From Bradyrhizobium sp. CIAT3101 (GTDB lineage: Bacteria; Pseudomonadota; Alphaproteobacteria; Rhizobiales; Xanthobacteraceae): 64,000 nucleotides of DNA. Location of the stretch: assembly GCF_029714945.1 (NCBI RefSeq), contig NZ_CP121634.1:4609001-4673000 (forward strand), read 5' to 3'. The translations under genes were made by a program, and so were the position numbers. Each line of letters begins with the position of its first letter. Position 1 is the first letter of the stretch. A model generated the notes under the pieces. The model was not told the DNA's origin. It was given only the letters and a program-made list of their open reading frames with translations, and made no database searches. Shown here in pieces: positions 39,433-52,610 of this stretch.

Positions 39433-39954
39433 CTAGGTCAGCTTCAATGTCATGTGAATGACGCCGGGCTCGCAGGTCGTTGCTGGCGTGAATCCAAATT
39501 TTTTGAAGACGCGGAGCATCGCCGCGTTGTCTGACAGCACCTCCGCGGTCAACTCCGTCAATCCAGCCTCGCGGGCGATTGCGATCAGGTGGCCCGTCAG
39601 CAGCCCGCCAATACCGCACCCTTGCCAGGCATCGATCACGACGAAAGCCGTCTCGGCCCGTCCAGGCTCGGACATGACATAGCGGCCACCGCCGATGATC
39701 GTGCTGCGGCCCGCGTCGTCCGTGCACGCGACGAGTGCCACGTGGCTCCTGAAGTCGGGTTCCATGAAGAAAGCGCGCTCCCGTTCGGAAAAATGGCGTT
39801 TCGTCACAAAGAAGCGGCGCTGGAGCGATTGTGCGCTGGTTTCTTCGAGCGCAGCGAGCATGTCGAGCTCGTCGTCGGGGCGAAGTGCCCTGATTTCGAT
39901 CAATCGTCCGTCGCGCAGCGTCTCGCGCCGGATGAAATTTGCGGCATCGGACAT
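39433..39954 (-). CDS. GNAT family N-acetyltransferase
   Basis: 173 residues. GNAT motif A is IDAWQGCGIGGLLTGHLIAIAREAG (acetyl-CoA pyrophosphate loop Q-G-x-G-x-G), with motif B at LTAEVLSDNAAMLRVFKKFGF. The N-terminal LRDGRLIEIRALRPDDELDM resembles the GNAT domain of protein acetyltransferases of the Pat type, but no CoA-binding domain is fused. The start at 39954 (MSDAANFIRRET) fits the domain. It is divergent from the DUF3141 operon; the FixK-like box lies 93 bp upstream of it. Substrate unknown. Confidence 0.85.
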   Translation of the reverse strand: MSDAANFIRRETLRDGRLIEIRALRPDDELDMLAALEETSAQSLQRRFFVTKRHFSERERAFFMEPDFRSHVALVACTDDAGRSTIIGGGRYVMSEPGRAETAFVVIDAWQGCGIGGLLTGHLIAIAREAGLTELTAEVLSDNAAMLRVFKKFGFTPATTCEPGVIHMTLKLT

Positions 39955-40046: not shown

Positions 40047-40060
40047 TTGACCTATATCAA
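40047..40060. promoter_or_regulatory. FixK/FNR-type box upstream of the DUF3141-pta-ackA-fabI operon
   Basis: TTGACCTATATCAA: perfect TTGA-N6-TCAA dyad, matching the FNR/FixK consensus TTGAY-N4-RTCAA. Its right end is 53 bp from the ATG at 40114. If centred at -41.5, transcription would start near 40095, leaving a leader of about 19 nt. Confidence 0.75.
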
Positions 40061-40113
40061 CGACGGCAACAGCCGGCCCTCTTGAATGACCTCGCGAGAC
40101 GACGAGGTCGAAC

Positions 40114-42336
40114 ATGGCGACGGAAATTCCAAAGCTGCCTGATGGTCCGATGTCGGGGCTGGTCGCCTCGGCCGTTGAATACATGGTCGATGCGGGACAG
40201 CGCAGCGTCCTGTTTCTCGACATCATGCGCCAGCGCGGCGACCAGTATCGCGAGCACGTCGCGCAGACTGCACCGCATGTGCTGCAATATGCTGCCGAAT
40301 TGATCACGGATGGCCGCTCGCTGGAGGAACCGGTCAACTACGCGCTGGTGCGCATCATTCCGCCGAAGGATGTCGAGATCGACATGAGCCGACGGCCGTT
40401 TGTCGTGGTCGACCCGCGGGCCGGTCATGGTCCGGGCATCGGCGGCTTCAAGGCGGACAGCGAGATCGGCGTCGCGATGAAGGCTGGCCATCCCTGCTAT
40501 TTCATCGGGTTCCTGCCCGAGCCGGTACCGGGCCAGACCATCGAGCGCATCGCGCGCGCGGAGGCGAAATTCATCGAGACGGTCATCAGCCGCCATCCTG
40601 ACGCCGACGGCAAGCCCTGCGTGATCGGCAACTGCCAGGCCGGATGGGCCGTCATGATCCTGGCGTCGCTGCGGCCGGAACTGTTCGGGCCTTTGATCAT
40701 CGCCGGCGCACCGCTTGCCTATTGGGCCGGCGTGCACGGCAAAAATCCGATGCGCTATTCCGGCGGTCTGCTGGGCGGCAGCTGGCTCACGGCGATGACG
40801 AGCGATCTCGGCGCCGGCAAGTTCGACGGCGCCTGGCTGGTGCAGAACTTCGAGAACCAGAATCCGTCGAACACGCTCTGGACCAAGCAGTACAACGTCT
40901 ATTCCAAGGTCGACACCGAGGCTGAGCGCTATCTCGATTTCGAGCGCTGGTGGGGCGGACACGTCAATCTCAATGCCGAAGAAATCCAGTTCATCGTCGA
41001 CGAGTTGTTCATCGGCAACAACCTCGCCGCCGGCCGGATCGAGATGTCCGACGGTCAAAAAGTCGACCTTCGCAACATCCGCTCGCCGATCGTGGTGTTC
41101 TGCTCCAAGGGCGACAACGTCACCCCGCCGCAGCAGGCGCTGGACTGGATCCTCGATTGTTACGCCGATGTCGACGAGATCAGGGCCTATGGCCAGACCA
41201 TCGTCTACACCGTTCACGAGAGCATCGGCCATCTCGGCATCTTCGTCTCCGGGGGCGTAGCGAAGAAGGAGCATGCGGAGTTTTCCAGCAATATCGACCT
41301 GATCGACGTGCTGCCGCCCGGGCTGTACGAAGCCACATTCCAGGCGAGGGGCTCCGACACCCGCAATGCCGATCTGGCTGCCGGGCAGTGGGTGATGCGT
41401 TGCGAGGCGCGGACGCTGGATGATATTCGCGCGATGGGAGGAAATTCGCCCGAAGACGAGCGGCGGTTCGCGGCGGCGAAGCGCGTCTCGGAGCTCAATC
41501 TCGCGGCCTATCAAAAGTTCGTGCAGCCATGGCTCAAGAAGATGGTCACGCCCCAGGTGGCGGACTGGGCGCGCAACATGCATCCGCTCCGGATGCAATA
41601 CGAAGCCTTCAGCACCAAGAACCCCTGGATGGCCGCCATCAAGTCGGCGGCTGATCGCGTCGAGGACAATCGCAGGCCGGTCTCGAAGGACAATCCGTTC
41701 CTGGCATTCCAGGAGCAGTTCTCGAAGCAGATCGTCCATGCGCTGGATAGCTGGCGTGATGCGCAGGAAGCGCTGAGCGAGACGATCTTCCTCAACGTCT
41801 ACGGATCGCCGGCGCTGCAGGCCGCGGTCGGCGTGGATCCGAATTCCGCGCCGTCGCGCCTGCGCGAGATGTCGGCGGAGCACCGCGCCATGCTCGACAA
41901 GCGGATCGCCGAGTTGAAGTCCCGGATGGGAGAGGGCGGCCTTCGCGAGGCGGCCATCCGCGCACTGCTCTATGTCGGCTCGGCTCGCGGCATGGTGGAC
42001 GAACGCAGCATCGAGGCGCTGCGCCAGATCCGGCGCGATCATCCCGGCGAACGGATGACGCTGCAGGCGTTCAAGACGCTGGTGCGTGAGCAATTCTTCA
42101 TGCTGCTGCTGGACCGGGACGCGGCGCTTGGCGCTATTCCCAATATGCTGCCGAACGATCTCAATCAGAAGCGCGCGGCTTTCGCTGCGATGCGCGAGGT
42201 GCTGTCGGCGAGCGAGGACATCAGCGGCGAGCGTGCGAACCGTCTGCGGCGGGTCGCCGGGCTGTTCGGACTGGACGGGGAAGGAGAGTGGACGTCGAAC
42301 GTCGCCCCTTTCGACCCCAAAGCAAAAGCGTCGTAA
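40114..42336 (+). CDS. DUF3141 domain protein (PHA-synthase-like alpha/beta hydrolase)
   Basis: 740 residues. The N-terminal half has an alpha/beta-hydrolase core resembling PhaC: FVVVDPRAGHGPGIGGFK, and a nucleophile elbow VIGNCQAGWAVMIL with Cys174 in place of serine. Later SPIVVFCSKGDNVTPPQQAL and VHESIGHLGIFVSG hold the likely Asp and His. The C-terminal 300 residues are helical and specific to the DUF3141 family. It leads an operon with phosphate acetyltransferase, acetate kinase and enoyl-ACP reductase, which suggests acyl-CoA or polyester chemistry. The exact reaction is unknown. Confidence 0.85.
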   Translation: MATEIPKLPDGPMSGLVASAVEYMVDAGQRSVLFLDIMRQRGDQYREHVAQTAPHVLQYAAELITDGRSLEEPVNYALVRIIPPKDVEIDMSRRPFVVVDPRAGHGPGIGGFKADSEIGVAMKAGHPCYFIGFLPEPVPGQTIERIARAEAKFIETVISRHPDADGKPCVIGNCQAGWAVMILASLRPELFGPLIIAGAPLAYWAGVHGKNPMRYSGGLLGGSWLTAMTSDLGAGKFDGAWLVQNFENQNPSNTLWTKQYNVYSKVDTEAERYLDFERWWGGHVNLNAEEIQFIVDELFIGNNLAAGRIEMSDGQKVDLRNIRSPIVVFCSKGDNVTPPQQALDWILDCYADVDEIRAYGQTIVYTVHESIGHLGIFVSGGVAKKEHAEFSSNIDLIDVLPPGLYEATFQARGSDTRNADLAAGQWVMRCEARTLDDIRAMGGNSPEDERRFAAAKRVSELNLAAYQKFVQPWLKKMVTPQVADWARNMHPLRMQYEAFSTKNPWMAAIKSAADRVEDNRRPVSKDNPFLAFQEQFSKQIVHALDSWRDAQEALSETIFLNVYGSPALQAAVGVDPNSAPSRLREMSAEHRAMLDKRIAELKSRMGEGGLREAAIRALLYVGSARGMVDERSIEALRQIRRDHPGERMTLQAFKTLVREQFFMLLLDRDAALGAIPNMLPNDLNQKRAAFAAMREVLSASEDISGERANRLRRVAGLFGLDGEGEWTSNVAPFDPKAKAS

Positions 42337-42365
42337 CGCGCATTGGCGCAAGCGGGAGTGACAGG

Positions 42366-43328
42366 ATGTCGGCCGATACGACGCAAGCCCAGTCCGGCAG
42401 CAAATATGACCGCCTGATCGCCGCGGCCCGGGCCGCGCCACCCACGCCGACCGTCGTCGTCCACCCCTGCGACGAGACCTCGCTGCGCGGGGCCGTCGAC
42501 AGCGCGAGCGCGGGCATCATCCGGCCGATCCTGGTCGGCCCCGCAAAGAGGATCAGGGACACCGCGGCGAAATTCGATCTGGACGTGTCCGGATTCGAGA
42601 TCGTCGATGCCGCGCATAGCGACGACGCTGCCGCCAAGGGCGTCGAGCTGATTCATTCCGCCAGGGGCGAGCTGTTGATGAAGGGCAGCCTCCACACCGA
42701 CGAACTGATGCGGGCCGTCACGGCCAAGACCGGCGGCCTGCGCACCGACCGCCGCATCAGCCATGTCTTCGTGATGGACGTGCCGGCCTATGCCGAGACC
42801 ATCTTCGTGACGGATGCCGCGATCAACATCTTTCCCGATCTCGACGCCAAGCGCGACATCATCCAGAACGCGATCGATCTCTACAACCAGGCTGGCTTCG
42901 GCACGAAGCCGCGGGTGGCGATCCTGTCGGCGGTCGAAACGGTCACCTCGAAGATTCCCTCCACCATCGAAGCGGCCGCTCTCTGCAAGATGGCCGACCG
43001 CGGCCAGATCACCGGCGGCGTGCTCGACGGTCCGCTGGCCTTCGACAACGCCATTGATCCCGAAGCGGCGCGGATCAAGGGCATCACATCCGAGGTCGCC
43101 GGGCGCGCCCAGATCCTGATGGTTCCGGATCTCGAGTCCGGCAACATGCTGGCCAAGAACCTCGCCTATTTTGCCAAGGCCGACGGCGCCGGCATCGTGC
43201 TCGGCGCCCGGGTACCCGTCGTTCTGACCTCGCGGGCGGATTCGCCGCGGGCGCGGATGGCCTCATGCGCGGTCGCCGCGCTCTACGCTCACGCCCGGCG
43301 CCAGCAGGCGCCGACAGTCGCGGCGTGA
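42366..43328 (+). CDS. Phosphate acyltransferase (phosphotransacetylase family)
   Basis: 320 residues of the PTA/PTB family, with [18 protein letters not shown] at the N-terminus, [26 protein letters not shown], and [21 protein letters not shown] plus [20 protein letters not shown] at the C-terminus. It swaps CoA for phosphate on an acyl group (acetyl- or short-chain acyl-CoA to acyl phosphate). It is a single-domain form without the MaoC-like hydratase domain found in the fused versions. 29 bp after the DUF3141 gene and 5 bp before ackA. Acetyl versus butyryl specificity is open. Confidence 0.9.
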
Positions 43329-43333
43329 CCGCC

Positions 43334-44548
43334 ATGGATACGATCCTGGTCGTCAATGCCGGCTCGTCCAGTGTCAAGTTCCAGGTCTATTCGGTCGAAG
43401 GCGACGGTGCGCTTCGCCGCCAGATCAAGGGACAGATGGACGGCATCGGCAGCCGGCCGCGCCTGCGGGCCAGCGGCGCGAGCGGTGATCCGCTGGCCGA
43501 TCGCGCCTATCCCATCGAGGCTGTGCCCGATGTCCCGACCGCAATGGCCGTCGCCGGCAACTGGCTGCGGGACGAGCTCCATGTCACACCGATCGCAGTC
43601 GGCCATCGTGTCGTCCATGGTGGCCCGGACTTTTCGCGGCCGGTCCTGATCGACCACGGCGTCGTGTCCCGCCTCGAACGTTTCGCGACGCTGGCGCCAC
43701 TGCATCAGCCGCACAATCTCGCGCCGATCCGCTCGCTGCTGGCGAACTTCCCGGCGCTGCCGCAGGTGGCATGTTTCGATACCGCCTTTCACCGCACGCA
43801 TGATGTGGTCGCCGATCACTATGCCATCCCGTATCAGCTTCATGCCGAGGGGGTGCGGCGCTACGGTTTTCACGGGCTGTCGTACGAATACATCGCACGG
43901 ACCCTGCCGACCGTCGCCCCCGATATCGCCAGGCGACGCGTGATCGTTGCCCATCTCGGCAGCGGCGCCTCGATGTGCGCGATCAAGGATGGGCGCAGCA
44001 TCGAGAGCACGATGGGCTTTACCGCGCTCGACGGCCTGCCGATGGGCACCCGTCCCGGACAAATCGATCCGGGCGTGGTGCTCTATCTGATGTCCGAGAA
44101 GGGCATGACGCCCGCGAAGGCCCAGGATTTCCTCTATCGCGAATGCGGCTTGAAAGGCCTGTCCGGCGTCAGCAACGACATGCGGGAGCTGGAAGCCAGC
44201 GCAAATCCGCAGGCGAGGTTGGCGATCGACTATTTCGTCTATCGGATCGGCCTCAACGCCGGCATGCTGGCGGCGGCCCTGCAGGGGCTCGACGCCTTCG
44301 TCTTCACCGCCGGGATTGGCGAGAATTCCGCATCGATCCGCGCGCGCATCGCCGAACAGCTCGGATGGCTCGGTGTCACGCTCGATGCGGGCGAGAACGC
44401 CCGCCATTCCCGGCGGATCTCGCGGGCCAACAGCCTGATTCCCGTCTATGTCGTTCCGACCGACGAGGAGTTGATGATCGCGCAGCACACATTGTCGATG
44501 CTGATGAACGGTCGATCCCACAACACACGACCTGAGAGGGTGTCATGA
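43334..44548 (+). CDS. ackA: Acetate (propionate/butyrate) kinase
   Basis: 404 residues of the ASKHA kinase family. [48 protein letters not shown] and [20 protein letters not shown] are the standard acetate kinase motifs. It makes ATP and acetate from acetyl phosphate supplied by the preceding gene product, or the reverse. ATG 43334 chosen; a GTG nine bases earlier would add three residues. Stop overlaps fabI start (ATGA). Confidence 0.93.
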
Positions 44549-45333
44549 TCCCCGTATTTCCGGACAGCAAGGTGGCCCTCAAGGGCAAGAAGGGCCTGGT
44601 TGTCGGCATCGCCAACGATCAGTCGATCGCCTGGGGTTGCGCGCGCGCGTTTCGCGCGCTCGGTGCCGATCTCGCGGTGACCTATCTGAACGACCGCGCC
44701 AGGAAGCACGTCGAGCCGCTGGCGCAGGCGCTGGAGGCGCCGATCTTCATGCCGCTGGACGTGATGGTCGAAGGCCAGACCGAGGCGGTCTTCGAGCGCA
44801 TCGCGAAGGAATGGGGGCAGCTCGATTTCCTGCTGCACTCGATCGCGTTCTCGCCCAAGGAGGCGCTGCACGGCCGTGTCGTGGACGTCGGCCGCGACGG
44901 CTTCCTCAAGACCATGGACGTGTCGTGCTGGTCGTTCCTGCGGATGGCTCATCTGGCCGAGCCCTTGATGAAGAACGGCGGCACGATGTTCACCATGACC
45001 TATTACGGCAGCCAGATGGTGGTGGACAATTACAACATCATGGGCGTCGCAAAGGCGGCGCTCGAGGCGGCCGTCCGCTATGCCGCCGCCGAGCTTGGAC
45101 CGAAGGGGATCCGCGTGCACGCGATTTCGCCGGGGCCGCTGGCGACGCGCGCGGCGTCAGGCATTCCGGAGTTCGACGAGCTCATGGACAAGGCGCAATC
45201 GAAGGCGCCGGCGCGCAGCCTCGTCAGTATCGACGATGTCGGCAATGCGACCGCGTTCCTGGCGCTCGATGGCGCCAAGCTGATCACCGGCAGCGTGCTC
45301 TATATCGACGGCGGATATCACATCATCGATTGA
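44545..45333 (+). CDS. fabI: Enoyl-ACP reductase, FabI type
   Basis: 262 residues of the divergent SDR type. [19 protein letters not shown] is the FabI-specific cofactor motif, [16 protein letters not shown] follows, and the catalytic Tyr-x6-Lys is in [19 protein letters not shown]. It reduces trans-2-enoyl thioesters with NAD(P)H. Housekeeping fabI is usually elsewhere; placement last in an acetate/PTA operon suggests a second copy used with acyl-CoA or ACP under special conditions. Convergent with the maoC-like gene 12 bp away. Confidence 0.9.
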
Positions 45334-45345
45334 GCGTCGCGTCCC

Positions 45346-45804
45346 TCAGCGATAGTGCAGGGCGATCAGCTCGGCGACGCAGGCGGGCTTCTTGCCGCCT
45401 TCGATCTCGATCACGAGATGGTAGTTCACGCGCAGGCCGTCCGGCGGCACGTCCTCGGCTTCCGCGACGGTGACGCGGCCGCGCAGCCTGGAGCCCGACG
45501 GCACGGGTGCGAGATACCTGATCCGGTCAGCGCCATAGTTGAGCGTGTTGCGCAGACCCTTCAAGCCGATCACGGAGCGGATGAAGAGCGGGGCGAGCGC
45601 GAGTGAGAGCAAGCCATGGGCGATCGTCTTGCCGCCTGGCATCTCCGCAGCTGCGCGCGCCTGGTCGACATGGATCCATTGCTCGTCGCAGGTCGCCTCG
45701 GCAAACTGGTTGATGCGATCCTGTGATACCTCGACCCAGTCGCTGACACCGATCTCCGTACCGACCGCGGATTTGATCTCGTTGAGGTCGCTGAATATCC
45801 GCAT
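45346..45804 (-). CDS. MaoC-family enoyl-CoA hydratase
   Basis: 152 residues of the hot-dog fold MaoC/NodN class. The hydratase motif is INQFAEATCDEQWIHVDQARA, with the catalytic Asp and His, and GKTIAHGLLSLAL follows. It hydrates (R)-specifically short enoyl-CoAs, producing (R)-3-hydroxyacyl-CoA, the PHA monomer type. Last gene of scoA-scoB-maoC, 13 bp after scoB. Confidence 0.88.
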   Translation of the reverse strand: MRIFSDLNEIKSAVGTEIGVSDWVEVSQDRINQFAEATCDEQWIHVDQARAAAEMPGGKTIAHGLLSLALAPLFIRSVIGLKGLRNTLNYGADRIRYLAPVPSGSRLRGRVTVAEAEDVPPDGLRVNYHLVIEIEGGKKPACVAELIALHYR

Positions 45805-45817
45805 GACTGTCCCCTTG

Positions 45818-46468
45818 TCAGAGTTTCATTTCCGGGACGTTGTCTGGCACGGTGAGCTCGGCCTCCGTGACCGCCATGACCTCGCCGACGCTGACACCGG
45901 GTGCGGTTTCCAGCAGCGTCGCCTTTCCATCGGGGAAGCCGATCACGGCCATGTCGGTGACGACCAGGCTCACCGGCCGCGCCGAGGTCAGGGGCAGGGT
46001 GCATTTGGCGACGATCTTCGACTTGCCCTTGGCGGCGTGCTGCATGGCGACGATGACGCGCTTGGCGCCGCTGACGAGGTCCATCGCGCCGCCCATACCC
46101 GGGACCATCTTGCCGGGGATCATCCAGTTGGCGAGCAGGCCGTGTGCATCGACCTGGAGACCGCCAAGTACGGTGACGTCGACATGACCGCCGCGGATCA
46201 GTCCGAACGACATCGCGCTGTCGAAGGTCGCCGCACCGGGCAGTGCGCTGATCGGACGGCCGCCGGCGTCGGTGAGCAGGGGGTGGGCCATGCCCTGCTC
46301 CGGAATGGGGCCGGTGCCGATCAGCCCGTTCTCCGACTGGAAGAACACCTTGAGATCGGCCGGGACGTAGTTGGCGACAAGGGTCGGAATGCCGATGCCG
46401 AGATTGACGAGATTGCCGCTCTTCAGCTCCCGGGCGACGCGACGGGCGATGATGATCTGCGGATCCAT
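45818..46468 (-). CDS. scoB: 3-oxoacid CoA-transferase subunit B
   Basis: 216 residues, beta subunit of succinyl-CoA:3-ketoacid or acetate-CoA transferase. The catalytic glutamate is in VFFQSENGLIGTGPI; NLGIGIPTLVANYVP and QVDAHGLLANWMIPGKMVPGMGGAMDLVSG are typical. With ScoA it moves CoA between acetoacetate (or acetate) and succinate-type donors. Starts 4 bp after scoA. Confidence 0.92.
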   Translation of the reverse strand: MDPQIIIARRVARELKSGNLVNLGIGIPTLVANYVPADLKVFFQSENGLIGTGPIPEQGMAHPLLTDAGGRPISALPGAATFDSAMSFGLIRGGHVDVTVLGGLQVDAHGLLANWMIPGKMVPGMGGAMDLVSGAKRVIVAMQHAAKGKSKIVAKCTLPLTSARPVSLVVTDMAVIGFPDGKATLLETAPGVSVGEVMAVTEAELTVPDNVPEMKL

Positions 46469-46472
46469 GATC

Positions 46473-47120
46473 TCACCCGTTCGTAATGAGGTAGTCGACG
46501 AGCGGCGCCGGCGTGACGACGTGATCAGGCGCGATCACGCCGACCGGGACGATATGCTCGGCCGTGACGATCACGGTGTCTGCCGCCATCGCCATGATCG
46601 GATTGAAATTGCGCGCCGTCAGCACGTAGGTGAGGTTGCCGAGATAGTCGGCGAGGAAGGCGTGGACCAGCGCGTACTGGGCGCGGATGGCGGTCTCCAG
46701 CAGGAACGGCTTGCCGTCGACCTCGATCTGGCGCTTGCCTTCCGCAACGAGCGTACCGACGCCGGTCGGCGTGAGGACGCCGCCGAGGCCGCAGCCGCCG
46801 GCCCGGATGCGCTCGACGAAGGTGCCTTGCGGCACGAGCTCCACGGCGATCTGGTTTCCCAGCATCTGCTGCTGCGCCTTTGGATTGAGCCCGATATGGG
46901 TGGCCGTCAGCTTCGAGACCTGCCCGGCGTCGAACAGCTTGCCGACGCCCTTGCCCGGCGTGGCGGCGTCGTTGCAGATCAGCGACAAGTCGGTCTTGTT
47001 CTGCCGCACGAGCTCGTTGAGCAGCCGCTCCGGCGTGCCGACGCCCATGAAGCCGCCGACCATGACGCTCGCGCCGGCCGGGATCATCGCGACGGCTTCT
47101 TCGACGGACACGGCCTTCAT
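46473..47120 (-). CDS. scoA: 3-oxoacid CoA-transferase subunit A
   Basis: 215 residues, alpha subunit. ASVMVGGFMGVGTPERLLNEL is the nucleotide-like CoA-binding region at the N-terminus and LTPTGVGTLVAEGK the later motif. First gene of scoA-scoB-maoC. A FixK-type box ends 63 bp upstream of its start at 47120. Likely role is acetoacetate activation or acetyl-CoA/acetate exchange in ketone-body or PHB breakdown. Confidence 0.92.
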   Translation of the reverse strand: MKAVSVEEAVAMIPAGASVMVGGFMGVGTPERLLNELVRQNKTDLSLICNDAATPGKGVGKLFDAGQVSKLTATHIGLNPKAQQQMLGNQIAVELVPQGTFVERIRAGGCGLGGVLTPTGVGTLVAEGKRQIEVDGKPFLLETAIRAQYALVHAFLADYLGNLTYVLTARNFNPIMAMAADTVIVTAEHIVPVGVIAPDHVVTPAPLVDYLITNG

Positions 47121-47183
47121 GGTCGGAACTCCGGTCGGCGGAGGTGAGAGGATGGGATGTTGGCGATGGGGGAATGCGCAGCC

Positions 47184-47197
47184 TTGATCTGCGTCAA
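47184..47197. promoter_or_regulatory. FixK/FNR-type box upstream of scoA-scoB-maoC
   Basis: TTGATCTGCGTCAA: perfect TTGA-N6-TCAA dyad embedded in a longer palindrome (GCCTTGATCTGCGTCAAGGC). It lies 63 bp upstream of scoA and 10 bp past the stop of the unrelated upstream gene, so it gives scoAB its own promoter. Confidence 0.75.
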
Positions 47198-47207
47198 GGC
47201 TGCACGC

Positions 47208-47801
47208 TCATTCGCGCGGCACCACGCCGATGCCTTGTAGCGTTTCGTTCCAGAGCCGGCGCACATCGGCGTGCCGCCGTTCGAGCGCCGCGCTGATCAC
47301 GTCCCTGACAGGAACGAGATCGGGTCCTTTCAGGTACAGGATCTGCGCCTGCAGCAGCCGGCTGCTTTCGAACTCGATCCGGCGCAGCGCCGTCACGAAT
47401 GGATCGTCCGCGTTTGCTTCCGTCGGCAGGAGGGCCGCCGGGCGGATGCCGGCGTGAACGGCGTGGGCGAGCGTCGCAAGGTGGATGGCCTGCGCGCGGG
47501 CGTGATCGGCAATGCCGTCGATCGGGGCGGGCAGCCAGGCCATTTCCCAGGACGCAGCCATAGGGGCTAGCGCGAAATCGGGGACCCACGTCGTCGCGCG
47601 CATGAGCAGGGAGACGATCTCGCTTTCGCGATAGAACTGCGCGTTCAGCTCGGTCTGCCAGGCAGCTTCGAATTTCGCGGGGAGGGCGAGGGCGAATTGC
47701 CGCGCCAGCGCGCCGTGGGCGGAGATCAGGAACGCGGCCACCCGCGTCTGCTGGCGCGGCGGCACGCGGCCATCCTCCAGCGGTCCGAAGAACGCGCTCA
47801 T
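47208..47801 (-). CDS. Unknown protein coupled to an alpha/beta hydrolase (197 aa)
   Basis: 197 residues from ATG 47801, overlapping the hydrolase stop by 4 bp. Helical, Trp-containing soluble protein (FETAWQ-type AAWQTELNAQFY, LMRATTWVPDFALAPMAASWEMAWLPAP, then AIHLATLAHAVHAGIRPA). No signal peptide or recognised domain. Placement between a FixK-controlled hydrolase and scoAB suggests a partner in the same acyl metabolism. No function assigned. Confidence 0.75.
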   Translation of the reverse strand: MSAFFGPLEDGRVPPRQQTRVAAFLISAHGALARQFALALPAKFEAAWQTELNAQFYRESEIVSLLMRATTWVPDFALAPMAASWEMAWLPAPIDGIADHARAQAIHLATLAHAVHAGIRPAALLPTEANADDPFVTALRRIEFESSRLLQAQILYLKGPDLVPVRDVISAALERRHADVRRLWNETLQGIGVVPRE

Positions 47802-48724
47802 GGCGCCGTCCTCCGCACCGGGATCGCGCGCAGATGGTCGTAACCGTCGGGAAAGGGCGCAAACGCGCCGCCGGGATCTTCCGGCGCGATCAGGACCTGC
47901 TTGTCGCCGTGCCAGCGGCCGGCCATCACGTCCTCGGCAAAGCGCGCCAGCAGGTCGGCCGTCAGCGCGGCCTTCTCGAGCGTGAAGGCGTGATAGGCCC
48001 GGGGGATGATGACGAGGGCGCTGTCGGGAATCTCGACACGCAGGGTCTCGTGCAGCGCCCGCGGCGTGAGGAAGTCGAACTCGCCGTTCAGGATCATGGT
48101 CGGCAGAGCGATGGAGGAGAGAAGCGGTGTCAGCGGCTTGAAGTCGAGGAAGGACTCCATCAGGTTCTGGAGCGCATAGACGTCGTTGACCAGCCAGCCC
48201 TGCCGCTTGACGCTGTCGAGCTTGTCCAGCAGCGGTTGCAGCCACTGGTCGGACAGGTTCATCGGCAGCAGCAGGTCCTGGAGATAACCGGTGCCGCCGA
48301 GGATCAGCCCGGTGCGCAAGGCATTGCCGATCAGCAGCAGTTGCGGCGACAGCTCGGCGAAGCAGCTCATCGGCACGAGCCCCGACAGCCGCTCGCCGTG
48401 CTCGATGGCATAGCGTAGCGCGATCAGGCCGCCGAAGCTGATGCCGCTGAGAAAGATCGGGCCGTCACCGAGCTCGCCGATCAGGCGATGCAGCACGGCG
48501 ACGTGGTCGTCCTGGCTGATGAACAGCGCGGGCTTGTCGGAGACGCCCTGGCCGAGCAGGTCGAAGGTCGCGACCCGGAAGTGCCGCGCGATGAGCGCGT
48601 CGCGATAGGCCCCCCATAGCTCCGAATATTGCGTGAGCCCGTTAACCAGCACATAAGCCGGCGCATCCGCCGGCCCGTCGAGCTCATAGCGGATCCGGTA
48701 TGAGCCATGACTGAGGAAAGGCAT
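47798..48724 (-). CDS. Alpha/beta hydrolase
   Basis: 308 residues from ATG 48724 (MPFLSHGSYRIRYELDG). VLVNGLTQYSELWG replaces the usual HG oxyanion motif; the nucleophile elbow is LSGISFGGLIALRYA (Ser), with NGEFDFLTPRALHETL (Asp) and PRAYHAFTLEKAAL (His). An esterase/lipase-type enzyme; substrate unknown. Frame open to 48832 but that region holds the divergent promoter. Divergent from the 835-residue hydrolase with a shared FixK box. Confidence 0.82.
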   Translation of the reverse strand: MPFLSHGSYRIRYELDGPADAPAYVLVNGLTQYSELWGAYRDALIARHFRVATFDLLGQGVSDKPALFISQDDHVAVLHRLIGELGDGPIFLSGISFGGLIALRYAIEHGERLSGLVPMSCFAELSPQLLLIGNALRTGLILGGTGYLQDLLLPMNLSDQWLQPLLDKLDSVKRQGWLVNDVYALQNLMESFLDFKPLTPLLSSIALPTMILNGEFDFLTPRALHETLRVEIPDSALVIIPRAYHAFTLEKAALTADLLARFAEDVMAGRWHGDKQVLIAPEDPGGAFAPFPDGYDHLRAIPVRRTAP

Positions 48725-48778
48725 CGCGAGACCCGCGTGATGATGGCCGCAATCCTCTACGTCGGCGTGAGCAATCCA

Positions 48779-48792
48779 TTGAGCTAAATCAA
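48779..48792. promoter_or_regulatory. FixK/FNR-type box in divergent promoter
   Basis: TTGAGCTAAATCAA: perfect TTGA-N6-TCAA dyad. It is 54 bp upstream of the minus-strand hydrolase start (48724) and 60 bp upstream of the plus-strand double hydrolase (48853). Centred at -41.5 in both directions it would give leaders of about 20 and 26 nt. Confidence 0.75.
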
Positions 48793-48852
48793 ACCCCGCC
48801 TTGATGCCCCGCCTAGCGTTCGCGCAAAACACCGCTCAGGAGGGAGTTCGTC

Positions 48853-51360
48853 ATGACCGGGAGTAGTGCACTCAAGCGTTGCTTCGTCAGCCTGGTTGTG
48901 TTGCTGGTCGGCACCGCGCTTGCGGTGGCGCAGCCGTTCACGCGGCGCTCGTCCCAGATGCAGCATGACGGTCTCAAGAAGTCCTATGAGATCGCGAACT
49001 TCCGCCTCGGCGGCAAGTACGACCTGACCGATCCTTCGAAATGGGAGAATGGCGGCGAGGGCGGCGTGACGCTGGAGTCGCTGGGCGGAGGCAAGCTACG
49101 GACCGCCTACATTGCGATCGGCAATGCCCGGCGCAACGCCGCCGGCGAGATCACCAATGCGATCGTGATCAATTCCTATTATTCCGGCGACTCCACCGAC
49201 ATGTATGAGCAGTGGGTCAAAGGCGCCGCCCTGTCGGGCGGCGTGCCCATCATCGGCCCGGGCCGGCCGATCGACACCGACCGCTACTACGTCATCATGG
49301 TCGATCCGCTCGGGACCTGGGGCGCCAGCAAGCCGTCGGACGGTCTCGGCATCAAGTTTCCGCAGTACAGCTACTACGACATGGTGCAGGCGAATTACCG
49401 CCTGCTGCGCGACGAGCTGAAGGTCGCGCGCGTCGCGCTGGTTTCGGGCGTCTCCATGGGCGGCACGCAGACCTATGTCTGGGGCGTGATGCATCCGGAA
49501 TATATCAACGCGCTGATGCCGATCGGCGGCACGACGCAGTCCGATGGTGAAGATCCCGTCGGCAATTGGACCTTCCAGATGATGACAGCTGCGATCGAAT
49601 CCGATCCGGTCTGGCAGGCAACCGAAGGTGATTATTACAAGTTGCCCAAGGAAAAGCATCCGATGCCCGGCGTGGCATTTGGCTGGTCGATCCTTGGCAT
49701 GACCGGCTATGACTTCGCCTTCCGCACGACCCAGAACTGGAAAGCCGTCCAGCCCGAAATCTTCTATTGGGATCCGCCGAACGAGAAGGCGGCCTTGAAC
49801 GTCATCAACCGCGCCAAGCTTTATGACGCGGTCGACCTCGTCTGGCGTAACCGGGTCGGCGAGACCCACAATATCAATCCTTATCTCGGCCGCATCCGGG
49901 CGCGCACGCTGGTGATGCACATCACCAACGACCTCTGGCTCAACTTCAAGCTGGCCCAACAGGCCGTCGATCGCGTGCCCGGTGCGGATCTCATTGCGCA
50001 GGAAAGCCCGGTCGCCCACTACGGCGTGTTCCCAATCATCAACCAGCGTAAGAACGATCCGAAATTCGTCGCTTTCATGGACGACGTCGCTGCGCTTGAT
50101 CGCGCGAACAAATTCGTCGACAAGAACTTCCGCGTGCCTGGCGTCGCCGAGGATATCGATCCCAAGAAGTCCTTCTGGAAAGACTTTGTGACCTATCCCT
50201 ATCCGGTCAAGTTCGCCAACGCCAAGGACAAGAGCGGCAACACCTGGCAGATAGGCTACATGGATGAATATAACGGCACCGACAAGGATCCGAAGGTGCT
50301 CGTCATCATCCACGGCAAGGGTGCGTTCGGAGGGCATTACGGCAATATCATGCAGCAAGCGCTGCGCAGCGGCATACGCGTGATCGTGCCGGACCTACCG
50401 CATTACGGCATGTCCGGCCCCGGCAATCTCGACAAGAGCCCCGCGCGCACCATGCAGGACATGCGCGAGGTGATCTACGATCTCGTCGTCAACCAGCTCG
50501 GCGTGAAGAAGGCCTATTATCTCGGCCATTCGCTCGGCGGCCAGTTCGTGATGGGCTATGCGCTGACCTGGCCGGATGCGGTGCAGGGACTTGCGCTGGA
50601 GGCACCTTCAGGCCTCGAAGAATATCCTCGCGAGATCACGATCGCCAAGGACAAGAAGGCAAAACTGTTCGACCCGGCCTTCGACCATGACTTCGACAAG
50701 TGGAGGGCGACTTGGGACCAGACCGGAATCCTCGCCGCCGAGAAAGCGCGCGATGAGCAGAGCGTCCGCGATTTCTTCTTCTTCAAGAAGCGTGATCCCG
50801 TCACAGGAGCCGTCTCGGCATCGAAGAGCGGTTACTTCTTCAGCGACAGCGAATATGCCCGCTTCCATACCGAGCAGCGTGTCGGATTGATCAGGGGCAA
50901 TCCGAAAGAGCTAGAACAATGGTGCAACGTCTTCATCTACGACATCTATACGATCGGAGCCGAGCTTCAGCAGGATGACCCGAAGAACCTCTTTGAGCGG
51001 GTCACGCAGATCAAGGCGCCGATCTTCCTCGCGTTCGGCGACAAGGAGCCGTTCATTCCGACGCCCGCGTTCAACGGGCTGACGGATCTCGGTCGCGACG
51101 TCATCACGCCCTTCATGTCGCGCATGACCAATGCCGGCAACCGGCCGATGCTCAAGATCTATCTGGAGACCGGGCACTTCATCCACACGGACAACCCGGT
51201 CGAGTATTCCGCCGACGTCGTGGATTTCGTGACCAAGGGCACGGTCGATACGTCGTCGCCGCTAGGGATCGACCGCATGATCAGGGGAGCTGTGGTCTCG
51301 GCTCTGCCGGTGGCGCCGACTCCGCCGGGGGCAGCCCCCACGGCCGGCCTCAACAAATAG
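48853..51360 (+). CDS. Exported double alpha/beta hydrolase (835 aa)
   Basis: 835 residues with an N-terminal signal segment (CFVSLVVLLVGTALAVAQ). Two alpha/beta-hydrolase domains in tandem. The first (about 75-410) resembles homoserine O-acetyltransferase-type enzymes, with nucleophile VSGVSMGGTQTY near residue 200. The second (about 465-800) is a separate hydrolase with LGHSLGGQFVMG. Linkers carry no known motif. AGGAGGGAGTT precedes ATG 48853 by a few bases. Tandem hydrolases of this size are unusual. First gene of a three-gene operon with another hydrolase and a phasin. Confidence 0.8.
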   Translation: MTGSSALKRCFVSLVVLLVGTALAVAQPFTRRSSQMQHDGLKKSYEIANFRLGGKYDLTDPSKWENGGEGGVTLESLGGGKLRTAYIAIGNARRNAAGEITNAIVINSYYSGDSTDMYEQWVKGAALSGGVPIIGPGRPIDTDRYYVIMVDPLGTWGASKPSDGLGIKFPQYSYYDMVQANYRLLRDELKVARVALVSGVSMGGTQTYVWGVMHPEYINALMPIGGTTQSDGEDPVGNWTFQMMTAAIESDPVWQATEGDYYKLPKEKHPMPGVAFGWSILGMTGYDFAFRTTQNWKAVQPEIFYWDPPNEKAALNVINRAKLYDAVDLVWRNRVGETHNINPYLGRIRARTLVMHITNDLWLNFKLAQQAVDRVPGADLIAQESPVAHYGVFPIINQRKNDPKFVAFMDDVAALDRANKFVDKNFRVPGVAEDIDPKKSFWKDFVTYPYPVKFANAKDKSGNTWQIGYMDEYNGTDKDPKVLVIIHGKGAFGGHYGNIMQQALRSGIRVIVPDLPHYGMSGPGNLDKSPARTMQDMREVIYDLVVNQLGVKKAYYLGHSLGGQFVMGYALTWPDAVQGLALEAPSGLEEYPREITIAKDKKAKLFDPAFDHDFDKWRATWDQTGILAAEKARDEQSVRDFFFFKKRDPVTGAVSASKSGYFFSDSEYARFHTEQRVGLIRGNPKELEQWCNVFIYDIYTIGAELQQDDPKNLFERVTQIKAPIFLAFGDKEPFIPTPAFNGLTDLGRDVITPFMSRMTNAGNRPMLKIYLETGHFIHTDNPVEYSADVVDFVTKGTVDTSSPLGIDRMIRGAVVSALPVAPTPPGAAPTAGLNK

Positions 51361-51368
51361 GGCTGCTC

Positions 51369-52232
51369 ATGGCCAGGGTGCAGGCGGGTGAGGTCCAGCT
51401 GGGCTGGCGGAGTTGGGGCGAGGGCGATGTCACCATCGTCTTCATCCACGGCAATCTTGCCAGCAAGGATTGGATCGAACTCGCAGCGCCCTTGTTTCCG
51501 TCGGGCCTCCGCGTCATCGGCATCGACTGGCGCGGCTGCGGCGACAGCGAGCGGCCGAAGCCCACCGCGGACTATGCAAACTACTCCATGCAGCAGCATG
51601 CCGACGACATGCTCGCGGCGCTCGATACGCTCGGCATCGGCTACTGCCACCTCGCCACGCATTCGACCGGCGGCATCATCGCCGCGCGCATGCTGCTGGC
51701 ACAGCCGCAGCGCTTCGGCCGGGTCCTCGCGCTCGACCCGGTGACGCCGCTCGGCATGGCCTTCAATGCCGACCAGATCGGCCTGTTCCGAGCGATGATG
51801 GCGAGCAAGGAGCTGACGCGGACGATCATGGCGACGGCCGCATCCTCGTTGTTCGTGCCGGAGAGCATGGCGCCGAACGCCGTTCCGCGGTTTCGCGACG
51901 GGCTGGGGGATATCCAGGCCCTGTTCGACCGCATCATCGATCAGACCTTCGGCGTCTCGGAGGGAATCTGGATTGGGACGCCAGTCAATCTGACGCGGGA
52001 AAGAGAGAGCCGCGAGCTGGAGCGCCGTATGAAGGAGCTCCGGCATCCGCATCTGGTGCTGTGGGGCGAATGGGATGGCTGGATCCCGCCGACCGATCTC
52101 CGCGCCATGGCCGAGGCGATGCCGGATTGCCGCCTCGTCGTCGTGCCCCGCATCGGACACTCGATGAACCTGGAAATGCCGGCGCTTTACGCCGGCTATT
52201 TCGGCGCATGGTTCGGAGGACTTGCCGCGTAA
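51369..52232 (+). CDS. Alpha/beta hydrolase
   Basis: 287 residues, cytoplasmic. TIVFIHGNLASKDWI (oxyanion HG), GIDWRGCGDSERP, nucleophile in HLATHSTGGIIAARML (Ser), LWGEWDGWIPPTDL (Asp) and RIGHSMNLEMP (His). Complete catalytic set. Starts 9 bp after the double hydrolase. With the phasin downstream a role in polyester or ester turnover is reasonable but unproved. Confidence 0.85.
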   Translation: MARVQAGEVQLGWRSWGEGDVTIVFIHGNLASKDWIELAAPLFPSGLRVIGIDWRGCGDSERPKPTADYANYSMQQHADDMLAALDTLGIGYCHLATHSTGGIIAARMLLAQPQRFGRVLALDPVTPLGMAFNADQIGLFRAMMASKELTRTIMATAASSLFVPESMAPNAVPRFRDGLGDIQALFDRIIDQTFGVSEGIWIGTPVNLTRERESRELERRMKELRHPHLVLWGEWDGWIPPTDLRAMAEAMPDCRLVVVPRIGHSMNLEMPALYAGYFGAWFGGLAA

Positions 52233-52259
52233 CCACGAACTCCTGAGAGGAGAGGCGTC

Positions 52260-52610
52260 ATGGCTGAGATCAACGTATCCGTAGAAGGCGTGCGTGCGAC
52301 AATGACCGACGCACTCGATCGCGTGCGCAAGGCCAACTCGAATTATTTCGAGCTGCTGGAGAAAGCCCTGAGCTCTTCACCGCTGCCGATTGCGAGCCAG
52401 GCGAAGGAGTTTTGCAGCGTCATGCAACGCAACGTCAACGCGACCTTCGATCTCGGCGACAAGCTGATCCATGCCAAGGATGTGCCGGACGCGCTCAAGC
52501 TCCAGGCCGACTTCTTCCAGGACCAGATGCGCGCGCTCACCGAGCAGACCCGGACCATGGGCGAGTCGGCGATGAAGGCCGCCGGCGGTCTGTTCGGTCC
52601 GAAGGGCTGA
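52260..52610 (+). CDS. Phasin family protein
   Basis: 116 residues, all helix, starting MAEINVSVEGVRATMTDAL, with NYFELLEKALSSSPLPI, SQAKEFCSVMQRNVNATFDL and ALTEQTRTMGESAMKAAGG. This is the phasin_2 type that coats polyhydroxyalkanoate granules. AGGAGAGG precedes the ATG. Its place at the end of a FixK-box operon ties this operon to PHA granules. Confidence 0.85.
   Translation: MAEINVSVEGVRATMTDALDRVRKANSNYFELLEKALSSSPLPIASQAKEFCSVMQRNVNATFDLGDKLIHAKDVPDALKLQADFFQDQMRALTEQTRTMGESAMKAAGGLFGPKG

What the first reader, a model, noticed from the sequence alone, without database searches (positions are those of the whole stretch)
40047..52610. Candidate oxygen-responsive acyl-CoA / acyl-phosphate / PHA module under three FixK-type boxes
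Sequence shows: eleven genes in four operons (DUF3141-pta-ackA-fabI; scoA-scoB-maoC; hydrolase-unknown; double hydrolase-hydrolase-phasin) and three perfect TTGA-N6-TCAA dyads at 40047, 47184 and 48779, each 53-64 bp before the first ATG of every one of the four operons. I saw no other such box elsewhere in the 64 kb by eye; at about 65 percent GC well under one is expected by chance. Known: this dyad is the FNR/FixK consensus, and pta/ackA make ATP from acyl-CoA, MaoC and phasin belong to PHA metabolism. Inference: low oxygen switches on a pathway that disposes of acyl-CoA, gains ATP and remodels PHA, with DUF3141 and the double hydrolase as uncharacterised members. FixK control of the whole set as a unit is, to my knowledge, not described.
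Basis: partly seen in the sequence, partly recalled or inferred. Interest (0 to 1): 0.85.

Follow-up and report, generated by a model that had tools for sequence, protein, structure and literature searches.

The report
FixK-box energy gene island in Bradyrhizobium
In soil and nodule bacteria of the genus Bradyrhizobium, a block of genes likely to make ATP from acyl-CoA and to handle storage polymer sits behind strongly conserved DNA sites of the type used by the low-oxygen regulator FixK, and it belongs to a larger island that looks like a kit for living with too little oxygen.

Summary
Three perfect TTGA-N6-TCAA dyads lie 53-63 bp before the first ATG of four operons. The genes number twelve, not eleven, and a fourth dyad lies inside a gene. 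A -10-like hexamer sits at one fixed offset in most copies of all four promoters. FixK-type control is well supported; binding, oxygen response and the acting FixK were not tested. The unit is larger: the divergent GNAT gene shares the first box, a FixK paralogue gene is linked in 42 of 74 loci, and seven loci add a box-headed pflB-pflA-focA operon. DUF3141 is predicted to have a PHA-synthase-like fold with an invariant Cys-Asp-His set. Best reading: a FixK-controlled fermentation and survival island, a new variant of a known kind.

The parts
40047..40060 (.). FixK-type box 1 (TTGACCTATATCAA), between the divergent GNAT and DUF3141 genes
   Evidence: perfect box upstream of DUF3141 in 72 of 72 scorable Bradyrhizobium loci and 79 of 80 named loci, the last with a consensus variant
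40082..40087 (+). -10-like hexamer TTGAAT, 35 bases from box start
   Evidence: read; A/T at position 2 and T at position 6 at this offset in 54 of 72 loci
39433..39954 (-). GNAT acetyltransferase, divergent from DUF3141; shares box 1 (92 bases away).
   Evidence: Pfam PF00583; start read; perfect box within 170 bp in 50 of 51 scorable loci: 25 of 25 adjacent (sharing box 1) and 25 of 26 lying apart
40114..42336 (+). DUF3141 protein, 740 aa; predicted PhaC-like alpha/beta-hydrolase with Cys174, Asp334, His373
42366..43328 (+). pta/ptb-type phosphotransacylase, only copy found in the genome
   Evidence: PF01515, NF008852; single hit in own genome
43334..44548 (+). ackA-type acetate/propionate kinase
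   Evidence: PF00871, TIGR00016; one paralogue elsewhere in the genome
44545..45333 (+). fabI-type enoyl reductase; two other FabI-like proteins (46 and 44 percent) are in the genome
   Evidence: NF005717 over cut-off
45346..45804 (-). MaoC-type dehydratase/hydratase
   Evidence: PF01575
45818..46468 (-). scoB, 3-oxoacid CoA-transferase subunit B
   Evidence: TIGR02428 over cut-off
46473..47120 (-). scoA, CoA-transferase subunit A
   Evidence: TIGR02429 over cut-off
47157..47162 (-). -10-like hexamer CAACAT of the scoA promoter
   Evidence: read; same test as above met in 56 of 71 loci
47184..47197 (.). FixK-type box 2 (TTGATCTGCGTCAA) for scoA-scoB-maoC; inside a 10-bp perfect inverted repeat in this genome
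   Evidence: 71 of 71 scorable loci
47208..47801 (-). unknown protein, 197 aa; predicted all-helical, perhaps ferritin-like
47798..48724 (-). alpha/beta hydrolase (hyd1)
   Evidence: PF00561
48752..48757 (-). -10-like hexamer GAGGAT of the hyd1 promoter
   Evidence: read; test met in 38 of 42 loci
48779..48792 (.). FixK-type box 3 (TTGAGCTAAATCAA), shared by two divergent operons
   Evidence: for hyd1 37 perfect plus 5 consensus variants of 42; for double hydrolase 37 plus 4 of 41
48814..48819 (+). -10-like hexamer TAGCGT of the double-hydrolase promoter
   Evidence: read; test met in 36 of 41 loci
48853..51360 (+). double hydrolase: signal-peptide-like start (by eye), MetX/E22-like domain, alpha/beta hydrolase domain
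49795..49808 (.). fourth perfect dyad, inside the double-hydrolase gene; probably incidental
51369..52232 (+). alpha/beta hydrolase (hyd2)
   Evidence: PF00561
52260..52610 (+). phasin (phaP6-like by position)
   Evidence: PF09361, TIGR01985 over cut-off

Best explanation
The boxes are working class II-type promoter sites for a FixK protein (FixK2 and/or a FixK paralogue often encoded next to the block). When oxygen falls, the FixLJ-FixK cascade switches on the block together with other box-headed genes of the same island. Proposed work of the block: acyl-CoA from pyruvate, amino acids or PHA is turned by the Pta/Ptb-type enzyme into acyl-phosphate and by the AckA-type kinase into acid plus ATP. 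The CoA-transferase and hydrolases move or release CoA, MaoC and the FabI-type reductase act on 3-hydroxyacyl or enoyl intermediates (an electron sink), and DUF3141 (PhaC-like) with phasin acts at the PHA granule. The other genes of the island (an Orn/Lys/Arg-type decarboxylase, aspartate decarboxylase with its antiporter; in some species pyruvate formate-lyase with a formate channel) fit survival on little or no oxygen by fermentation and proton-consuming decarboxylation. Shown here: the sites, their conservation, promoter geometry, gene content. From papers: FixK2 box definition, induction in a phaR mutant at 0.5 percent oxygen, activation of bll3466 by FixK2. Inferred: binding, oxygen response, the metabolic route.
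For: Box core invariant while spacer letters vary, and before operon heads only: DUF3141 72 of 72, scoA 71 of 71, hyd1 42 of 42 with variants, against 0 of 77, 77, 70, 65, 45, 41 and 20 perfect boxes before ackA, fabI, scoB, maoC, unknown, hyd2 and phasin (second set). The seven loci with a box before pta are the seven where a pfl operon separates pta from DUF3141. The variants fit the published FixK2 box TTG(A/C)-N6-(T/G)CAA (PMC5582078, passages). A hexamer with A/T at position 2 and T at position 6 lies 35 bases from box start in 54 of 72, 56 of 71, 38 of 42 and 36 of 41 loci; at shifts of 1 to 6 bases the counts are at most 21, 25, 13 and 23. That fits the start site at 40.5 from the axis reported for nosR. 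FixK proteins with the LETVSR helix are encoded in this genome. A FixK paralogue is linked to the block in 42 of 74 loci; bll3466, in the matching place in USDA110 by locus number (its sequence was not compared), is activated by FixK2 (PMC9104804, passages). In USDA110 blr3456-blr3459 is up in a phaR mutant at 0.5 percent oxygen (transcript 7.2-fold, protein log2 7.2 for blr3456), in which fixK2 is up 3-fold and 41 of 51 putative FixK2 targets rise (PMC10888616, passages). PFL, AspD and AspT equivalogs. DUF3141.
Against: No expression or binding data were seen for these promoters. Searching the main text of the microoxic proteome paper PMC6515984 by locus tag found none of the USDA110 block genes, and no passage seen in the held papers places them under FixK2. 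Induction in the phaR mutant could be direct PhaR derepression. Other CRP/FNR proteins (NnrR, FnrN-like) may read similar sites. Outside the genus the box is nearly absent before DUF3141 (1 of 36 genomes), so the enzyme set does not need this control. The linked FixK gene itself has a consensus box within 400 bp in only 1 of 42 loci. AspT and AspD were seen in none of the stretches fetched round the block in other genomes (0 of 74 and 0 of 80; the stretches may end too early), so their place in the island rests on this genome. NCBIfam names the pta as phosphate acetyltransferase, but its substrate was not tested. A secreted double hydrolase fits an intracellular PHA route poorly.
Confidence: 0.72

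Rival explanations
1. The block is primarily a PHA module repressed by PhaR; the boxes play a minor part or serve another CRP/FNR protein such as NnrR (nitric oxide) rather than an oxygen signal.
For: In USDA110, blr3456-blr3459 and phaP6 (blr3464) are derepressed in a phaR mutant, and PhaR-type motifs are listed at -97 and -92 of blr3456 (PMC10888616). The genome has 32 matches to the HTH_Crp_2 model, 23 over its cut-off (150 of 207 candidates scored).
Against: The same mutant raises fixK2 and most putative FixK2 targets, so the effect may pass through FixK2. The PhaR motif NGCN3GC[GA]N3 is loose, and the authors call it presumably abundant, whereas the FixK core is invariant. blr3456 is not among the promoters named as tested for PhaR binding.
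Confidence: 0.15
2. The dyad at 47184 is only the stem of a terminator hairpin after the unknown gene, not a regulatory site.
For: In this genome it lies in a 10-bp perfect inverted repeat directly after the stop codon of the unknown gene.
Against: Across 71 loci the TTGA-N6-TCAA core is invariant while the outer arms vary. It persists where the unknown gene was not found (L097 and L123), and a -10-like hexamer lies at the same offset as in the other promoters.
Confidence: 0.04
3. The regulator is the block-linked FixK paralogue (bll3466 type) alone, responding to something other than oxygen, for example redox through RegSR.
For: Linked in 42 of 74 loci; phosphorylated RegR binds the bll3466 promoter and bll3466 is RegR-dependent under anoxic denitrifying conditions (PMC4064962, passages).
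Against: bll3466 is also activated by FixK2. In this genome the paralogue lies outside the block, about 107 kb away, and the protein taken as FixK2 has the same LETVSR helix.
Confidence: 0.2

Closest known systems
FixLJ-FixK2 regulon of Bradyrhizobium diazoefficiens
   Same: Box sequence and variants, distance to start, microoxic setting, a FixK paralogue (bll3466) numbered next to phaP6 (blr3464)
   Different: Targets named in the passages read are respiratory, denitrification, heme and PHA synthase genes among others; the DUF3141-pta-ackA-fabI, sco-maoC and hydrolase operons are not named there. The full regulon list (Mesa 2008) could not be read
Low-oxygen-activated (lxa) locus of Burkholderia cenocepacia
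   Same: A large gene island switched on by low oxygen (listing and mentions seen; content recalled)
   Different: Different genus; its genes and regulator were not compared here
Fnr regulons of Herbaspirillum seropedicae
   Same: Fnr1 directly regulates a dksA-phaC2-fabI operon and other PHB genes, and Fnr3 a phasin gene (PMC5934665, passages)
   Different: Different operon make-up; whether that phaC2 is a DUF3141 protein was not tested
PHA synthase PhaC
   Different: About 14 percent identity, scores far below the PhaC family cut-offs, an extra, mostly helical C-terminal region
PhoB-controlled pta-ackA operon of Sinorhizobium meliloti (recalled; only a search listing seen)
   Same: Pta-AckA operon in a rhizobium
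   Different: Controlled by phosphate stress, not by FixK, as recalled

Membership tests
FixK2-type box-controlled operons | TTG(A/C)-N6-(T/G)CAA dyad in the promoter | tested here: met
FixK2-type box-controlled operons | Dyad placed for class II activation (axis about 40 bases before the start site) | tested here: inconclusive
   -10-like hexamer at the right offset in most loci for all four promoters; start sites not mapped
FixK2-type box-controlled operons | Conservation of the box at orthologous operons | tested here: met
   within Bradyrhizobium; rare outside the genus
FixK2-type box-controlled operons | FixK-type regulator encoded in the same genome | tested here: met
FixK2-type box-controlled operons | Expression depends on fixK2 and low oxygen; protein binds | not testable with these tools
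   needs experiment; indirect data in PMC10888616
PHA synthase (PhaC) family, for DUF3141 | Score over the curated PhaC models | tested here: not met
   TIGR01836 25.5 bits against a cut-off of 365.3; TIGR01838 22.3 against 622.65
PHA synthase (PhaC) family, for DUF3141 | PhaC-like fold | tested here: met
   predicted model; the seven best rows are PhaC, then lipases
PHA synthase (PhaC) family, for DUF3141 | Catalytic Cys-Asp-His | tested here: met
   C174, D334, H373 invariant in 25 of 25; their arrangement in space was not inspected
Phasin | Score over the phasin_2 model | tested here: met
   TIGR01985 105.4 bits against 99.7; PF09361
Di-iron ferritin-like oxygenase (ADO type), for the unknown protein | Ferritin-like fold | tested here: inconclusive
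Di-iron ferritin-like oxygenase (ADO type), for the unknown protein | Two conserved ExxH motifs (recalled as typical of the class) | tested here: not met
   no invariant ExxH pair in the 21-sequence alignment A2 (by eye)

The most novel reading that the evidence does not exclude
The block is a FixK-switched PHB fermentation route: (R)-3-hydroxybutyryl-CoA from the granule is dehydrated by MaoC, reduced by the dedicated FabI-type reductase (disposing of NADH), and the butyryl-CoA is cashed in for ATP by the phosphotransacylase and the kinase, with the PhaC-like DUF3141 and phasin acting at the granule. The storage polymer would then serve as both electron sink and ATP source when respiration stops. 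For it, gene content only: the pta scores 305 bits on the phosphate butyryltransferase model against 68 on the classic Pta model, and over the cut-off of a MaoC-Pta fusion family (NF006045). Against it: its best model is named phosphate acetyltransferase (NF008852, 516 bits, over cut-off), the butyryltransferase score is below that model's cut-off (410.5), and the kinase matches AckA, hardly the butyrate kinase model (350 against 48 bits) (all).
Probability: 0.12. Interest if true: 0.8.

Novelty: new variant of a known kind. Interest (0 to 1): 0.55.

Why it matters
Bradyrhizobium is usually thought of as living by oxygen or nitrate respiration (general knowledge). A conserved FixK-box island holding the genome's only phosphotransacylase of this family, a PhaC-like DUF3141 protein, decarboxylases and, in some species, pyruvate formate-lyase points to a fermentative survival programme that may matter in nodules, waterlogged soil and ageing bacteroids. 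It gives context to DUF3141 and to an uncharacterised helical protein, and makes a clear set of promoter tests possible.

Tried and rejected
Chance origin of the boxes: rejected. Terminator reading of box 2 as its sole role: rejected. A CRP/FNR gene inside the window: none among the 32 matches to HTH_Crp_2 (150 of 207 candidates scored). The fourth dyad as a promoter element: unlikely. A sequence relative of DUF3141 among solved structures: none believable (the top rows are short repeats of designed proteins), so a fold comparison was used. FixK boxes before DUF3141 outside the genus: 1 of 36 genomes (starts are extrapolated from alignments, some stretches are short and operon heads may differ, so this may undercount). 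Self-regulation of the linked FixK gene: box within 400 bp in 1 of 42 loci. Some USDA110 tags were guessed from neighbouring numbers. Rows dropped: loci without the gene, with an alignment start beyond residue 12, or with too little upstream DNA were not scored (DUF3141 73 of 80 loci scored, 72 of them Bradyrhizobium; the one other had no box). In one search GNAT was found in 52 of 74 loci and scored in 51; the single miss (L165) is a 28 percent match 15 kb away. In one search hyd1 had one miss (L238) and GNAT one (L263). Sets L092-L165 (74 loci of 71 genomes) and L202-L281 share genomes and are not independent. Not all matching genomes were fetched: one search found a DUF3141 match in 136 of 146 genus genomes (many of them weak), and one search kept the best 80 of 354.
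Full report
WHAT IS THERE. The window lies in a single 9.37 Mb contig. Its DUF3141 protein is identical over 740 residues to that of Bradyrhizobium sp. CCGUVB4N. There are twelve, in four operons with gaps of at most 29 bases or short overlaps. The three intergenic ones lie 53, 63, 54 and 60 bases before the four first ATGs.

IS IT MORE THAN CHANCE. Shuffles of the window give 0.37 such dyads on average and never four in 100. The genome holds 168 against 34 of the same pattern read backwards. In 74 related loci (1.343 Mb) there are 333 with a spacer of six, against 6, 7, 7 and 11 with spacers of 4, 5, 7 and 8, and 0 to 14 of five other patterns.

CONSERVATION. Within 150 bases upstream a perfect dyad was found for DUF3141 in 72 of 73 scorable loci (the one miss is outside the genus), scoA in 71 of 71, hyd1 in 37 of 42 and the double hydrolase in 37 of 41. 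The remaining 5 and 4 are TTGA-N6-GCAA or, on the other strand, TTGC-N6-TCAA, inside the published FixK2 box. The genes inside operons had no perfect dyad: ackA 0 of 77, fabI 0 of 77, scoB 0 of 70, maoC 0 of 65, unknown 0 of 45, hyd2 0 of 41, phasin 0 of 20; pta is the exception treated next. The named set agrees: DUF3141 79 perfect plus 1 variant of 80, scoA 66 of 66, hyd1 42 plus 5 of 48 with one miss, double hydrolase 40 plus 5 of 45, GNAT 59 of 60. The two sets share genomes.

A NATURAL EXPERIMENT. For pta, 7 of 77 loci have a perfect upstream box. These are the seven in which other genes lie between DUF3141 and pta, making pta an operon head. The inserted genes form a box-headed run divergent from pta. 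In L146 they encode a formate C-acetyltransferase (TIGR01255 over cut-off), a radical-SAM protein (the activating enzyme by context), an aspartate-alanine-exchanger-type protein and a formate/nitrite transporter; relatives of all four are in all seven loci. Pyruvate formate-lyase makes acetyl-CoA, the substrate that Pta and AckA can turn into ATP (general knowledge).

PROMOTER GEOMETRY. Aligned on the box, all four promoters show a conserved hexamer at the same place, 28.5-33.5 bases from the axis (counted on the printed consensus). In the window these are TTGAAT 40082-40087, CAACAT 47162-47157, GAGGAT 48757-48752 and TAGCGT 48814-48819. Tested as A/T at position 2 and T at position 6, it is met in 54 of 72 (DUF3141), 56 of 71 (scoA), 38 of 42 (hyd1) and 36 of 41 (double hydrolase); at shifts of one to six bases the counts are lower, at most 21, 25, 13 and 23. 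With the axis at -40.5, as mapped for nosR (PMC5582078, passages), the hexamers fall at the -10 position. Start sites were not mapped here.

A LARGER UNIT. The GNAT gene divergent from DUF3141 shares box 1 in the window. It has a perfect box in 50 of 51 scorable loci: 25 of 25 where it is adjacent and shares the box, and 25 of 26 where it lies apart and has its own. In the window I saw no clear -10 on its side. In relatives the same stretches also hold an AI-2E-type transporter gene (41 of 74), a FixK paralogue (42 of 74 as best match; 43 at a looser threshold), a hydrolase (16), a sulfate-permease-type transporter (10) and an Orn/Lys/Arg-type decarboxylase (2); many stretches end before these (L097 has all five). 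In this genome those genes lie at 4.536-4.556 Mb, about 100 kb from the block, together with an aspartate-alanine antiporter and aspartate 4-decarboxylase (TIGR03802 and TIGR03801 over cut-off); the box-headed ones there are the AI-2E gene, the divergent hydrolase and permease, the decarboxylase and the divergent AspT/AspD pair. AspT and AspD were in none of the stretches from other genomes. The block thus seems to have moved as one piece relative to its neighbours; the direction of the move was not determined.

WHICH REGULATOR. FixK-type proteins with the LETVSR helix are encoded at 6655190 (taken as FixK2 because of a Cys before the helix; recalled sequence feature), 4541532 and 2593202, and a Cys-rich one with IETVSR at 2994284. 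Relatives of the 4541532 protein are linked to the block in 42 of 74 loci. In USDA110 the FixK-like gene bll3466 has a number close to phaP6, blr3464; its sequence was not compared. It is activated by FixK2 (PMC9104804, passages), and RegR binds its promoter (PMC4064962, passages). A cascade FixLJ-FixK2-paralogue is likely; the division of labour is unknown.

PUBLISHED DATA. PMC10888616 (passages and two sections seen) lists blr3456-blr3459 as an operon raised in a phaR mutant at 0.5 percent oxygen, transcript 7.2-fold and protein log2 7.2 for blr3456, with blr3457 pta and blr3458 ackA strongly induced and phaP6 repressed by PhaR. The same mutant shows fixK2 up 3-fold and 41 of 51 putative direct FixK2 targets raised. 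Against the reading: searching the main text of the microoxic proteome paper PMC6515984 by tag found only bll3466 of this region, and searches for eleven tags of the block and its neighbours besides bll3466 (some guessed) gave two papers, neither of which, in the passages seen, places the block under FixK2. The regulon paper of 2008 is not held, so it may already list these genes, and novelty of FixK control cannot be claimed outright. blr3464, blr3474 and blr3477 are among genes that change over soybean nodule development (PMC8632152, passages; direction not seen).

VERDICT. A real, genus-wide conserved set of FixK-type promoters on an acyl-phosphate, CoA-transferase and PHA-related block that belongs to a larger island. 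Kin of known FNR/FixK-controlled low-oxygen genes, with an unusual gene set. Regulation is likely; the exact metabolism is a hypothesis.

Noticed in passing
G000 contig 1, 1.566-1.654 Mb (L282-L285): A second cluster of TTGA-N6-TCAA dyads (14 in the four stretches read), many of the form TTGAC-N4-GTCAA, in lower-GC DNA (about 0.60), before genes for a TPP enzyme, an AI-2E transporter, G6PD and an aldehyde dehydrogenase, with CRP/FNR-family genes at 1568712 and 1634485. It may be a separate regulon.
   Followed up: partly
G000 contig 1, 4.536-4.556 Mb (L287): Box-headed AI-2E transporter, hydrolase, sulfate-permease-type, Orn/Lys/Arg-type decarboxylase and AspT/AspD genes with a FixK paralogue and a FixJ-like regulator (the last by eye): the other part of the island in this genome.
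   Followed up: yes
L144, L146, L151, L153, L154, L155, L156: Pyruvate formate-lyase operon with FixK-type box inserted between DUF3141 and pta in seven Bradyrhizobium loci.
   Followed up: yes
window 47178-47203: Box 2 lies in a 10-bp perfect inverted repeat in this genome; the outer arms vary in relatives.
   Followed up: yes
window 47208-47801: Unknown helical protein with invariant His and Glu residues on several helices, possibly a metal site; no canonical di-iron motif.
   Followed up: partly
window 42366-43328: The phosphotransacylase scores over the cut-off of a MaoC-Pta fusion family (NF006045), and a separate maoC lies in the same block.
   Followed up: no
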